A DNA stretch of 23,023 bases. It comes from a bacterium. GTDB lineage: Bacteria; CAIWAD01. Under the pieces are notes generated by a model, which worked only from the letters and a program-made list of their open reading frames with translations, was not told the origin of the DNA and searched no databases. Each line of letters starts with the position of its first letter. The first letter of the stretch is position 1. Where the stretch lies: positions 1 to 23,023 of the forward strand of contig JAUIFJ010000045.1 of assembly GCA_030429345.1 (NCBI GenBank). The letters run 5' to 3'. A program made the position numbers and the translations under genes. Of the stretch, positions 10,231 through 22,375 are shown in pieces.

Positions 10231-10599
10231 TCAGTGTTCCAGGCAGCTGTCGACCAGCCGTTTCAGGTAGGCGAAATCCCAGGGCTTGCGAATGAAATCC
10301 GTCGCCCCGGCCAGGACCAGGTCGCGGGCGATCTCCTCTTCGTCATAGGCCGTGATGATGATCACCGGAGTGCGATGATCCGAGCTGCGCAGACTCTTGA
10401 TCACCTGCAGCCCGTTGAGCCGCGGCATGTAGAAGTCCAGGAAAACCAGGTCCGGCTTCCAGTCCTCGACCGCCTGCAGGCCCTCTTCCCCGTTGGCCGC
10501 GCCCTGGCACTGGTGTCCTTCGCCCTCGAGGAAGTCGATCAGGGTGTTGCGAACGGCATCCTCGTCGTCGATGACAAGGATGCGGGCACCTTCGTTCAT
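10231..10599 (-). CDS. Stand-alone response-regulator receiver protein (CheY-like) A
   Basis: 122 residues forming one receiver domain and nothing else. Conserved positions are all present: acidic pocket Asp11/Asp12, phosphoacceptor Asp55 in VFLDFYMP, Thr83 in IIITAY, and Lys105 in FIRKPWD. A single-domain receiver acts by protein contact or as a phosphorelay intermediate, not by DNA binding. ATG 10599 has a strong AAGGAG site four bases upstream and overlaps the previous stop (ATGA), so translation is probably coupled to receiver B. No cognate kinase is encoded within its own operon, since the sensor upstream lacks catalytic parts. Confidence 0.93.
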   Translation of the reverse strand: MNEGARILVIDDEDAVRNTLIDFLEGEGHQCQGAANGEEGLQAVEDWKPDLVFLDFYMPRLNGLQVIKSLRSSDHRTPVIIITAYDEEEIARDLVLAGATDFIRKPWDFAYLKRLVDSCLEH

Positions 10600-11006
10600 T
10601 GCGTCTCCTTTTCAGCGGGGAAAATCCGCTTCAGGACCTCTTGCATCCGTTCCGGCTTGAAGGGCTTGAACACGGTCTCGGCCACTCCATGGGATTCTAG
10701 GATCGGCAGATAGTCCTCGCCGATGAAGCCGCTGATCACCACGATGCGCAAGTCCTCGTCGTCCTTGCGAATGCGCTGGATCAGTTCGGTGCCGCTCATG
10801 ACGGGCATCTGGATGTCCGTGATCAGCAGGTCGGGCCGCTTCTCGCAGTAGGCCTGCCATGCCAGTTCGCCGTTCTCCGCTTCGCGGATCTCCGAGAACC
10901 CGTAGATCCTGAGCCATTCGACCATGATCTCCCGCATGTCGGCAATGTCGTCGACCAGTAGACAGGATTTTCCGGCGACTCCCGGTATCTTCAACTGCGG
11001 ACTCAT
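10596..11006 (-). CDS. Stand-alone response-regulator receiver protein B
   Basis: 136 residues, a single receiver domain with a short N-terminal lead (MSPQLKIPGVAGK) and a charged C-terminal tail. Conserved residues are Asp19/Asp20 (LLVDD), phosphoacceptor Asp64 (LLITDIQMP), Ser92 in the switch position (VVISGF) and Lys114 (VFKPFKP). It is distinct in sequence from receiver A, so this is not a recent duplication. Its ATG overlaps the stop of the sensor gene by four bases (ATGA), and its own stop overlaps the start of receiver A in the same way. Together these indicate one polycistronic message and likely equal expression. Confidence 0.93.
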   Translation of the reverse strand: MSPQLKIPGVAGKSCLLVDDIADMREIMVEWLRIYGFSEIREAENGELAWQAYCEKRPDLLITDIQMPVMSGTELIQRIRKDDEDLRIVVISGFIGEDYLPILESHGVAETVFKPFKPERMQEVLKRIFPAEKETQ

Positions 11007-19422: not shown

Positions 19423-22375
19423 AATTCTCCTTTCGGGCGGGCAGCTCGATGCTGACCATGGTGCCCTGTCCGACTTCGCTTTCGATCTTCAGGCTTCCCC
19501 CGCTGCGCTGGATGATCGTGTGCGTCAGCGACAGGCCGAGACCGGTCCCCTTTCCCGGATCCTTCGTGGTGAAGAAGGGATTGAGCACGTTGGGCAGGTC
19601 CTCCTTCGAGATCCCGACCCCTGTATCACGAAAGCTCAGCAGCGCCATCCCGCCTTTCATCCCGGCATGGATGGTGAGCGTGCCGCCGTCCGGCATGGCC
19701 TGTGTGGCATTGATGATGATGTTCAGCAGGGCCTGCTTCATCTCGTCCAGGTTGAGCTCGATGGGCGGGATCGGCTGCAGGTCCTTCTCCAGCTGGATGT
19801 TGTTGACCAGCAGCTCCTTGGTCACCAGGTCGAGGGTGATCCCCAGCAGGTCGACCAGGTCGACGGCCTCGCGCTCGACCTTGGAGACCCGGCTGAAGGA
19901 GAGCAGGTTCTCGATGATCTTGCGCGCGCGGTCCAGCTCCTTGCCGATGATGCCCAGGTGCTTCTTCAGCTGCGGGCTCAGCTCGGAACCCGATTTCTCC
20001 AGGGTCGAATCCACGTAGTACAAGGAACTGCCCATGATGCCCAGCGGATTGCGCAGCTCGTGGGCGATGCCCGCGCTGAGCTGCCCCAGTCCGGCCAGTT
20101 TCTGGCTCTGGTTGAGCGTGAATTCCATGGCCTGCTTCTCGGTGACATCGCGGTAGAAGCTCTGCAGCACGCGCTGGCCCTCGTTCTCCGTGATCAGGCT
20201 GTCGTACTCCACGTAGATCAGCTTGCCGTCCTTGCGGACCAGCGGAATGCCCTCGAAGCGTGTCTCACCGTTGGAACTGATCGACTTGATCCAGTTGCGC
20301 CGCGCGATCTCGCGGAAGTCGGCGGGCCGCAGCTCCCAGATGCGGCGGCCGAGCAGTTCCTCCTCGTTGTAGCCCGTCAGGTCGAGGGCCGCGCGATTGA
20401 CTTCCAGGATCGAGGCGTCCTCCAGGCTGATGACGAAGACCGCGAAGCGCGCCTTGTCGTAGAGCTGGCGGAACTTCTCCTCCGTGCGCTGGAACTGGCT
20501 CTTCAGGCGCGCCTCCTCGAAGCGGAAGGCCAGGCCCTCCAGGGCGAGGGCCAGCAGGGTGTCCGTCTGTCGGGGGGGTTCCTTGCTTCCGCCGACGAAG
20601 AGCGCGCCGTGCCGCCGGTTCTCGTGTCCGTATACGGGTAGCGCCCAGCCCGGCCCCAGGGGGTGGTCGCCCGGCAGGCGCTGTCTCACACCCGGGCGGC
20701 TCTCCGGGTCCAGGCAGCCCTTCAGCTGTTCGAGCAGGACCTCCGGCTGCTGCAGGATCTCGTCGTCGGGATCGAAACCGGCGCTGCTGATCATGTGTGT
20801 CTCACGGCTGGGATCGCCCAGGAAGAGCAGCACGCGATCGACTTCCGGCATGGCGCTCAGGCTGCCCACCAGCCCCTCGAGCCGGAAGCGCAGCGCGTGG
20901 CTCTGGTCGCTTTCGGCCTCGCTGCCCAGGCTGAGCTCGAGCAGCATGTTGCTCGCGCGCTCCAGGCGGCGACGCTGCTTCTCGATGCTCTCCTCCAGCG
21001 GCGTGTTCTCCGTGTCCCGCCGGACCTGGTAGACCAGGCGCTCCGCGCCGCGGCGCGGCCCCAGCTGGCAGATCACGGGCAGGTCCCCGCGCTGCGAGCG
21101 AAGGCGGCCCGTAAGGCGGTTGCCTGACTTGATCTCCAGGTCGAGCAGCTCCTTCCGCGGCCGTCCGATCCAGTCTTCCGCGCTGGCCCCGATCAGCTTG
21201 ACCAGCGGCAGGCTCAGGTCGATGATCTGGTCCTTGGAGTCGGTCACCAACAGCGGCACGTGCAGGGAGATCGCCCGTTCGCGAAAATAGTGCGCGCCCT
21301 GTTCCGGAGCCCCGCCCGTCAGCAAGGTGATGCAGACCGCCCCGCGCCGCCGGTTGTCGTCGAGCAGGGGACTGAGGGTCAGCACCACCGGGCGCTCGTG
21401 GCCCGCCGAGCTGCGCACCCTCGTGCGCCAGCGCCAGCACTGCGTCAGCGCCGGCATGCGGTCGAAGACCTCCTCGATCAGGCCGCCGGCCTCCCCCTGC
21501 AGCACGTCGAGCACATGGGTGTCTTCCGAGCTGCGCGGATCCAGTCCCAGGAAGTCGACGGCCGCCTCGTTGCCCCAGAGCACCGTCCCGTGCTGGCTGA
21601 CGATCAGCACCGCTTCCAGCTCCGAGCTCTCCGGGCTCTCCTCCAGATCAAGAATCGATTCGGCGCAGAAAAGACGCAGACCTCCCGAATCCTCGACGGG
21701 CAGCAGGCTCAGCTCGATGGCCTGTGTGACACCGGCAAGAGGCAGTTCCAGGATCATGCTCGTGCGGTCATCGGAATGCAGGAATTCCTGCAGGCGCTGG
21801 CGCTTGGCGGCCGGAAGCGCGTCGAGGAAGGCTTCGGCCGTGCCTTCGTGCAGATGGAAGAGTGAGACCATGGCCGGATTGGGCGCCAGCAGGCGACCTT
21901 CCTCGTCGACCAGCGAGGCGGCCATCGGCAGGCTGCGCAGCAGCGAAGCGCTCAGGTCCCGCCGTCCCCGGCTTTCCAGCTGGTCCAGCTGCTGGTTCAT
22001 CCGCAGCTGTTGCTCGGCCTTCTGCAGGCTGAGTTTGAGGATCTCGAAGAGGAAGGGCTTGGTCAGGTAGTCGATGGCGCCCTTGTGCAGGGCCTCGAGC
22101 ACGGTCTCCATGGAGCCGTAGCCCGTGACCACGATCACCTGGACCTGGGGATAGTTCTTGTGGATGATGTCGATGACGTCCATACCCGAGATGCCGGGCA
22201 GGTTGAGGTCGGTGATCACCAGCTCCAGCTCGTTGGCTGCCAGGAGCTGCATGCCCGACGCGCCGTCCGCCGCCGACAGGACCTCGTAGCCTTCGAGGCG
22301 CAGGTAATCGGTAAGGATCTGCAGTGCGTCCGGGTCGTCATCGATGACCAGGATTCGCCGGATGGGTTTGGACAT
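19412..22375 (-). CDS. Hybrid sensor histidine kinase: receiver-PAS array-GAF-PAS-HisKA-HATPase
   Basis: 987 residues from ATG 22375, chosen for its GGGGAG ribosome site and because the receiver begins immediately (MSKPIRRILVIDDD); the open frame further upstream to 22537 looks non-coding. It is soluble, with no membrane helix. Order: receiver (1-120; Asp12/Asp13, phosphoacceptor Asp56, Thr84, Lys106), three PAS-like segments (about 145-240, 250-350, 365-455), a GAF-like region (470-622), a clear PAS (632-747), HisKA with His772 in AGIAHELRNPLG, and HATPase with N-box Asn885/Asn889, G1 DTGVGIS (917-923) and PFFTTKDPGKGTGLGL. All catalytic motifs are intact; this is the only complete kinase in the window. 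It leads a three-gene operon and should phosphorylate the NtrC-type regulator. The N-terminal receiver makes it a target of a relay as well. Confidence 0.94.
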   Translation of the reverse strand: MSKPIRRILVIDDDPDALQILTDYLRLEGYEVLSAADGASGMQLLAANELELVITDLNLPGISGMDVIDIIHKNYPQVQVIVVTGYGSMETVLEALHKGAIDYLTKPFLFEILKLSLQKAEQQLRMNQQLDQLESRGRRDLSASLLRSLPMAASLVDEEGRLLAPNPAMVSLFHLHEGTAEAFLDALPAAKRQRLQEFLHSDDRTSMILELPLAGVTQAIELSLLPVEDSGGLRLFCAESILDLEESPESSELEAVLIVSQHGTVLWGNEAAVDFLGLDPRSSEDTHVLDVLQGEAGGLIEEVFDRMPALTQCWRWRTRVRSSAGHERPVVLTLSPLLDDNRRRGAVCITLLTGGAPEQGAHYFRERAISLHVPLLVTDSKDQIIDLSLPLVKLIGASAEDWIGRPRKELLDLEIKSGNRLTGRLRSQRGDLPVICQLGPRRGAERLVYQVRRDTENTPLEESIEKQRRRLERASNMLLELSLGSEAESDQSHALRFRLEGLVGSLSAMPEVDRVLLFLGDPSRETHMISSAGFDPDDEILQQPEVLLEQLKGCLDPESRPGVRQRLPGDHPLGPGWALPVYGHENRRHGALFVGGSKEPPRQTDTLLALALEGLAFRFEEARLKSQFQRTEEKFRQLYDKARFAVFVISLEDASILEVNRAALDLTGYNEEELLGRRIWELRPADFREIARRNWIKSISSNGETRFEGIPLVRKDGKLIYVEYDSLITENEGQRVLQSFYRDVTEKQAMEFTLNQSQKLAGLGQLSAGIAHELRNPLGIMGSSLYYVDSTLEKSGSELSPQLKKHLGIIGKELDRARKIIENLLSFSRVSKVEREAVDLVDLLGITLDLVTKELLVNNIQLEKDLQPIPPIELNLDEMKQALLNIIINATQAMPDGGTLTIHAGMKGGMALLSFRDTGVGISKEDLPNVLNPFFTTKDPGKGTGLGLSLTHTIIQRSGGSLKIESEVGQGTMVSIELPARKENYVV

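What the first reader, a model, noticed from the sequence alone, without database searches (positions are those of the whole stretch)
10231..22375. Two signalling operons sharing a single intact kinase
Across two gene-overlapping operons there are five receiver domains, one NtrC-type output, one c-di-GMP output, a HDOD-like protein and three long GAF/PAS sensors, but only the 22375 kinase has His772 and a complete ATPase domain. The similar architecture of the two degenerate sensors (GAF/PAS arrays ending in dead HisKA) and their proximity suggest one network, perhaps a branched relay or a dimer-exchange system in which dead HisKA domains pair with receivers or with the live kinase. This is the best candidate here for an undescribed system.
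Basis: inference. Interest (0 to 1): 0.65.

Follow-up and report, generated by a model that had tools for sequence, protein, structure and literature searches.

The report
Kinase-dead sensor tied to lone receivers
Beside an ordinary bacterial two-component signalling pair lies a second small operon whose sensor has lost every residue needed to act as a kinase but kept the one needed to switch off partner proteins, a pattern also conserved in distantly related bacteria, so it probably works as a sensor-controlled off-switch or docking site rather than as decayed junk.

Summary
The observation largely holds. Two tightly overlapping operons contain one intact histidine kinase (His772), an NtrC-type regulator, a GGDEF sensor, an HDOD-fold-like protein, a GAF/PAS sensor with a kinase-dead HisKA, and two lone receivers. 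Corrections: one of the five receivers (in the GGDEF protein) is a pseudo-receiver; the two 'dead HisKA' domains belong to different families (HisKA_3-like and HisKA); three tRNA genes and terminators separate the operons; the genome has about 40 other HisKA or HATPase domains, so 'single kinase' is only local. The block is syntenic in three genomes of a sister genus (one lacks the GGDEF protein); in a more distant class member the operons are apart. The best part is the second sensor, a member of the known but unstudied 'HisKA, no HATPase' class. Within that class lies a subfamily (21 proteins, four lineages here) in which phospho-His is Asp and the adjacent kinase-essential acid is lost while the phosphatase-essential Thr/Asn is kept; 16 of 21 are fused or adjacent to a receiver. 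Most likely it is a signal-regulated phosphatase or docking partner for the lone receivers, not a relay. Dimer exchange with the live kinase has no sequence support. New variant of a known kind; moderate interest.

The parts
19412..22375 (-). Hybrid histidine kinase REC-PAS-PAS-PAS-GAF-PAS-HisKA-HATPase_c, AtoS/NtrB-like, His772
   Evidence: orthologs in G001-G004
18013..19422 (-). NtrC/AtoC-type sigma-54 response regulator, 69-74% identical in relatives
15278..18016 (-). GAF-GAF-GGDEF-pseudoREC-PAS-HisKA_3-like protein; GGEEF and upstream RxxD intact
16010..16306 (-). Pseudo-receiver of the GGDEF protein (acidic pair lost)
15326..15514 (-). Degenerate HisKA_3-like helix pair of the GGDEF protein (His->Phe here, His in G001/G003, absent in G004)
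15150..15223 (-). tRNA-Ala(GGC), between the operons
   Evidence: conserved
14912..14985 (-). tRNA-Gly(GCC)
14813..14883 (-). tRNA-Cys(GCA)
14892..14910 (-). Intrinsic-terminator-like hairpin with T8 tail
14792..14810 (-). Second terminator-like hairpin, before operon 2
13821..14546 (-). HDOD-fold-like protein, first gene of operon 2; poorly conserved (25%) but in the same position in relatives
11003..13828 (-). Sensor GAF-PAS-GAF-GAF-PAS-HisKA with no HATPase
11159..11341 (-). HisKA (DHp) domain with Asp836 at the phospho-His position, Gln837 at the kinase-acid position, Thr840 at the phosphatase position
   Evidence: helical hairpin predicted
11099..11158 (-). Conserved C-terminal tail (Y..P..xMYDLEKS) in place of the catalytic domain
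   Evidence: disordered in the isolated model
10596..11006 (-). Stand-alone receiver REC1, all key residues present
10231..10599 (-). Stand-alone receiver REC2, all key residues present; NCBIfam best match is the AtoC receiver

Best explanation
Operon 1 is an ordinary AtoS/AtoC-like (NtrB/NtrC-like) pair: a soluble hybrid kinase phosphorylates an NtrC-type sigma-54 activator, with a GAF-controlled diguanylate cyclase attached whose receiver and DHp parts are vestigial. Operon 2 encodes a GAF/PAS sensor that is a pseudo-kinase without a catalytic domain. Its DHp dimer cannot autophosphorylate or transfer phosphate. It acts on the co-encoded lone receivers REC1/REC2, most likely as a signal-controlled phosphatase of REC~P through the retained H+4 Thr/Asn. 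The receivers would be charged by the neighbouring kinase or by another of the cell's many kinases, so the sensor would set how strongly they compete with NtrC or act as messengers. Shown: gene content, residue states, missing catalytic domain, conservation, linkage to receivers. Inferred: the phosphatase activity, which kinase charges REC1/REC2, and any effect on NtrC.
For: The Asp at the phospho-His position is fixed in all four family genomes and the same-class genome, so this is not recent decay. In 41 tail-bearing homologs without a catalytic domain the residues change together: all 17 Asp forms have a non-acidic H+1 residue (Q/R/H/K) and all 24 His forms have Glu; H+4 is Thr/Asn in all 17 Asp forms. 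Four more Asp forms from the family of G084 show the same pattern, giving 21. A tree puts 16 of the 17 in one clade and one (G102) inside a His clade, so the paired change arose at least twice. [quoted passage not shown] The His is not essential for phosphatase activity (PMC12632262). Receivers: 15 of 21 Asp forms have a receiver gene directly downstream and one is fused to a receiver; in 10 genomes of another lineage the order is Asp form, lone receiver, then a REC-fronted HATPase kinase. The DHp is predicted as an intact helical hairpin.
Against: No activity is measured. DivL, a pseudo-kinase with Tyr at this position, has no phosphatase activity and instead stabilises DivK~P (PMC4211667). 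Bourret et al. note that the frequencies of His loss do not fit a general phosphatase role for pseudo-kinases. A catalytic domain greatly increases phosphatase activity in NtrB and EnvZ, and here there is none. Five Asp forms (family of G084) show no adjacent receiver, although several lie near contig ends. The paired change rests on only two inferred independent events.
Confidence: 0.42

Rival explanations
1. DivL-like docking: the Asp-type DHp binds phosphorylated REC1/REC2 without changing their phosphorylation, and the resulting complex allosterically changes the neighbouring hybrid kinase, as DivL-DivK~P does to CckA.
For: Same set of parts: pseudo-kinase, lone receiver, hybrid kinase, conserved side by side in two lineages. 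DivL is a precedent without kinase or phosphatase activity.
Against: DivL keeps a catalytic domain and carries Tyr; here the catalytic domain is gone and the phosphatase residue is kept in every Asp form. DHp identity to the kinase is only 26%.
Confidence: 0.28
2. Two independent regulatory operons that happen to be neighbours; REC1/REC2 serve a different pathway (for example motility) and have nothing to do with the kinase-NtrC pair.
For: tRNA genes and terminators lie between them. In G004 they are apart and sensor-REC lies upstream of fliD/fliS. The genome has about 40 other HisKA or HATPase domains.
Against: Adjacency is kept in four of four genomes from two genera although the proteins other than NtrC are only 25-53% identical.
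Confidence: 0.25
3. One reading: dead HisKA domains form mixed dimers with the live kinase or pass phosphate on.
For: Proximity and repeated GAF/PAS architecture.
Against: No phospho-accepting residue for a relay; DHp segments are 26% (HisKA) and 18% (HisKA_3-like, no better than shuffled) identical to the kinase's; the GGDEF protein is missing from G002 and its receiver is a pseudo-receiver.
Confidence: 0.05

Closest known systems
'HisKA, no HATPase' / 'possible incomplete histidine kinase' proteins (Galperin et al. 2018, PMC5847659)
   Same: PAS/GAF sensor ending in HisKA with no HATPase; some fused to REC; a phosphatase role was suggested there.
   Different: Those described keep the His and were described in archaea; here the His is Asp, the adjacent acid is lost, and a conserved C-terminal tail is present.
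DivL-DivK-CckA of Caulobacter (PMC4211667)
   Same: Pseudo-histidine kinase without the phospho-His, a lone receiver and a hybrid kinase in one circuit.
   Different: DivL keeps a catalytic domain, has Tyr, and is not a phosphatase; no sequence orthology was shown here.
AtoS-AtoC / NtrB-NtrC two-component systems
   Same: Kinase and sigma-54 regulator of operon 1 match AtoS and AtoC models best.
   Different: Scores are far below the equivalog cut-offs; the kinase has an N-terminal receiver.
Pseudo-receivers (Bourret et al. 2025, PMC12632262)
   Same: The receiver of the GGDEF protein lacks catalytic residues.
   Different: Different residues are lost in different relatives (acidic pair in one group, Asp and Lys in another); the domain sits between GGDEF and PAS.

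Membership tests
HisKA-without-HATPase (incomplete histidine kinase) class | HisKA domain match | tested here: met
   PF00512 33.5 bits, cut-off 26.9
HisKA-without-HATPase (incomplete histidine kinase) class | No HATPase_c domain in the protein | tested here: met
   No match in P0004; none of the genome's 43 HATPase_c matches lies in this gene
HisKA-without-HATPase (incomplete histidine kinase) class | Conserved phospho-His (as in the described archaeal members) | tested here: not met
   Asp836 in the window; Asp in all 5 orthologs. It is a variant, not a typical member
DivL | Pseudo-kinase lacking phospho-His | tested here: met
   Asp at that position
DivL | Degenerate but present catalytic domain | tested here: not met
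   Protein ends about 50 residues after the DHp domain
DivL | Binds a phosphorylated lone receiver | not testable with these tools
   Only gene linkage seen
AtoS/AtoC | Above NCBIfam equivalog cut-offs | tested here: not met
   AtoS 220 of 646 bits; AtoC 457 of 714 bits
NtrC-type sigma-54 response regulator | REC + Sigma54_activat + Fis-type HTH | tested here: met
   PF00072, PF00158, PF02954; one rpoN in the genome
HDOD domain | Pfam/NCBIfam HDOD profile match | tested here: not met
   No match
HDOD domain | HDOD fold | tested here: inconclusive
   Six best VIA-align hits are HDOD-type structures, Z 7.2-10.8, but Foldseek E >= 0.3 and model pLDDT 53.6

The most novel reading that the evidence does not exclude
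The Asp-type HisKA proteins without a catalytic domain are a separate, widespread functional class: sensor-controlled receiver phosphatases made by removing the two kinase-only residues and the catalytic domain from a histidine kinase. They would act on lone receivers that compete with, or feed back on, a neighbouring hybrid kinase.
Probability: 0.3. Interest if true: 0.65.

Novelty: new variant of a known kind. Interest (0 to 1): 0.42.

Why it matters
'HisKA, no HATPase' proteins are common (three more lie in this genome alone) and are usually annotated as kinases; the census that described receiver-containing ones says none has been studied and their partners are unknown. A subfamily in which exactly the kinase-only residues are lost and the phosphatase residue is kept makes the proposed phosphatase role directly testable and names the likely substrates.

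Tried and rejected
Finding relatives in named genomes gave only two distant matches, so the organism's name was not established. A sigma-54 site scan gave seven -24/-12 sites against one in the control; one lies upstream of what looks like flgB, none in the window, so the NtrC target set stays unknown. Considered and rejected: recent pseudogenisation of the second sensor (intact 941-codon frame; Asp and tail conserved in five genomes); recent duplication of the live kinase into the dead sensor (DHp 26% identical); receiver linkage as a universal rule (not seen next to the Asp forms of the G084 family). The 13552-14463 frame and other long overlapping frames are high-GC shadow frames, not genes.

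Full report
What is there. On the minus strand two operons follow each other. Operon 1: hybrid kinase (22375-19412), NtrC-type regulator (19422-18013), GGDEF sensor (18016-15278). Operon 2: HDOD-like protein (14546-13821), GAF/PAS sensor (13828-11003), REC1 (11006-10596), REC2 (10599-10231). Genes inside each overlap by 4-11 bases. Between the operons lie tRNA-Ala, tRNA-Gly and tRNA-Cys and terminator-like hairpins at 14910-14892 and 14810-14792. By sequence they are therefore separate transcription units.

Checking the parts. Pfam gives REC, PAS, HisKA and HATPase_c for the kinase, REC-Sigma54-Fis for the regulator, GAF-GAF-GGDEF-REC for the third gene, GAF-PAS-GAF-GAF-PAS-HisKA for the second sensor, and REC for the two small proteins. 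The kinase His is residue 772 from the ATG at 22375 and its nucleotide-binding motifs are present. Kinase and regulator match AtoS and AtoC best but below equivalog cut-offs. The third gene's receiver has lost the acidic pair here and in G001/G003, and in G004 the phospho-Asp is Asn and the Lys is His; I therefore call it a pseudo-receiver. Its C-terminal helices match HisKA_3 above cut-off in the relatives; the His is present there, Phe here and absent in G004, and the acid after it is missing in all. The GGDEF motif and the RxxD inhibitory site are intact (sequence). The HDOD label has no profile support, but the fold comparison favours it on a weak model.

'Single kinase'. The genome carries 43 HATPase_c and 41 HisKA matches, so the lone receivers are not confined to one possible kinase.

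Conservation. Three genomes of another genus in the family keep kinase, NtrC, the tRNA trio, HDOD-like protein, sensor, REC1 and REC2 in the same order. G003's block is split over two contigs. G002 has no GGDEF-protein ortholog anywhere in its (90% complete) assembly. NtrC is 72-74% identical, the HDOD-like protein about 25%, the others 37-53%. In G004, same class but another family, kinase-NtrC-GGDEF is on one contig followed by an opposing gene, and sensor-REC is on another, upstream of what look like fliD and fliS. So the operons belong together in this family but not beyond it, as far as one incomplete genome can tell.

The kinase-dead sensor. Its HisKA reads VSDQINTPL where a kinase has xxHExxNP. 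All five orthologs have Asp for the His and a non-acidic residue next to it, and keep Thr or Asn four residues on. There is no catalytic domain; a conserved tail (consensus YALPNVHMYDLE) follows instead. A profile of this region found many proteins elsewhere with the same layout: PAS, HisKA, tail Y-L-x-G-x-x-M-x-D-L, no catalytic domain. Most keep His-Glu. Many have a receiver fused directly after the tail or at the N terminus, or encoded next door. In 41 aligned members all 24 His forms have Glu next to it and all 17 Asp forms do not; the Thr/Asn is present in all 17. The tree needs at least two His-to-Asp events. Four further Asp forms (family of G084) bring the number to 21.

Receiver linkage. 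Of the 21 Asp forms, five (window family and G004) and ten (lineage of G159) have a receiver gene directly downstream, one (G102) is fused to a receiver, and five (family of G084) have none in view. In all ten genomes of the G159 lineage a kinase with an N-terminal receiver and a HATPase domain follows the lone receiver (in two genomes after a gap of about 0.8 kb), the same general kind of kinase as in the window.

Mechanism. Published work assigns the acid next to His exclusively to kinase activity and the Thr/Asn exclusively to phosphatase activity, and notes that NtrB and EnvZ DHp domains alone suffice for phosphatase activity (PMC3510030); the His itself is not essential for it (PMC12632262). 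Galperin et al. already suggested a phosphatase role for 'HisKA, no HATPase' proteins (PMC5847659). The paired loss of kinase-only residues with retention of the phosphatase residue fits that suggestion. The main rival is DivL-like docking, since DivL does not dephosphorylate DivK~P (PMC4211667). Relay and mixed-dimer ideas are disfavoured by the missing phospho-acceptor and by DHp divergence. Structure prediction shows an intact PAS and DHp hairpin with an unstructured tail. The tail may fold on a partner; that is inference.

Limits. Linkage is not interaction. The Asp sampling comes from roughly 900 searched genomes and is biased by the query. Only two independent Asp origins are inferred. 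Organism names are not known. No complex could be predicted.

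Noticed in passing
window 8467-9310: Two BMC shell-protein genes (EutM-like and EutK-like) lie just downstream of operon 2; the pair and the following S8 protease gene are also downstream in G001 and G003 but not in G002.
   Followed up: partly
window 22700-22850: Direct repeats of about 26 bases (GTCCAGCCGAATGGCACGGCATCCT and variants) upstream of the kinase near the contig end; possibly an insertion-sequence end.
   Followed up: no
L102:1275-2141, L102:4408-5625, L103:1511-2257: Three more HisKA proteins without a catalytic domain in the same genome, all with intact His-Glu (HEINNPL); one has an N-terminal receiver.
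   Followed up: partly
window 9429-10187; L012:16031-17728: A LOG-type (TIGR00730) gene follows REC2 here; in G001 and G002 that place holds a different protein of about 565 residues.
   Followed up: no
L018:3248-7332: In G004 the Asp-type sensor and its receiver sit upstream of what look like fliD and fliS, hinting at a motility role there.
   Followed up: no
L025:959-974: A -24/-12 sigma-54 site lies just upstream of what looks like flgB in the window's genome, so some flagellar genes are probably sigma-54 dependent.
   Followed up: no
L058, L111-L114: In the family of G084 the Asp-type sensor gene directly follows what looks like a tRNA nucleotidyltransferase gene.
   Followed up: no
L057:8816-9715: In the G159 lineage a receiver fused to an anti-sigma-type ATPase-like domain precedes the Asp-type sensor.
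   Followed up: no
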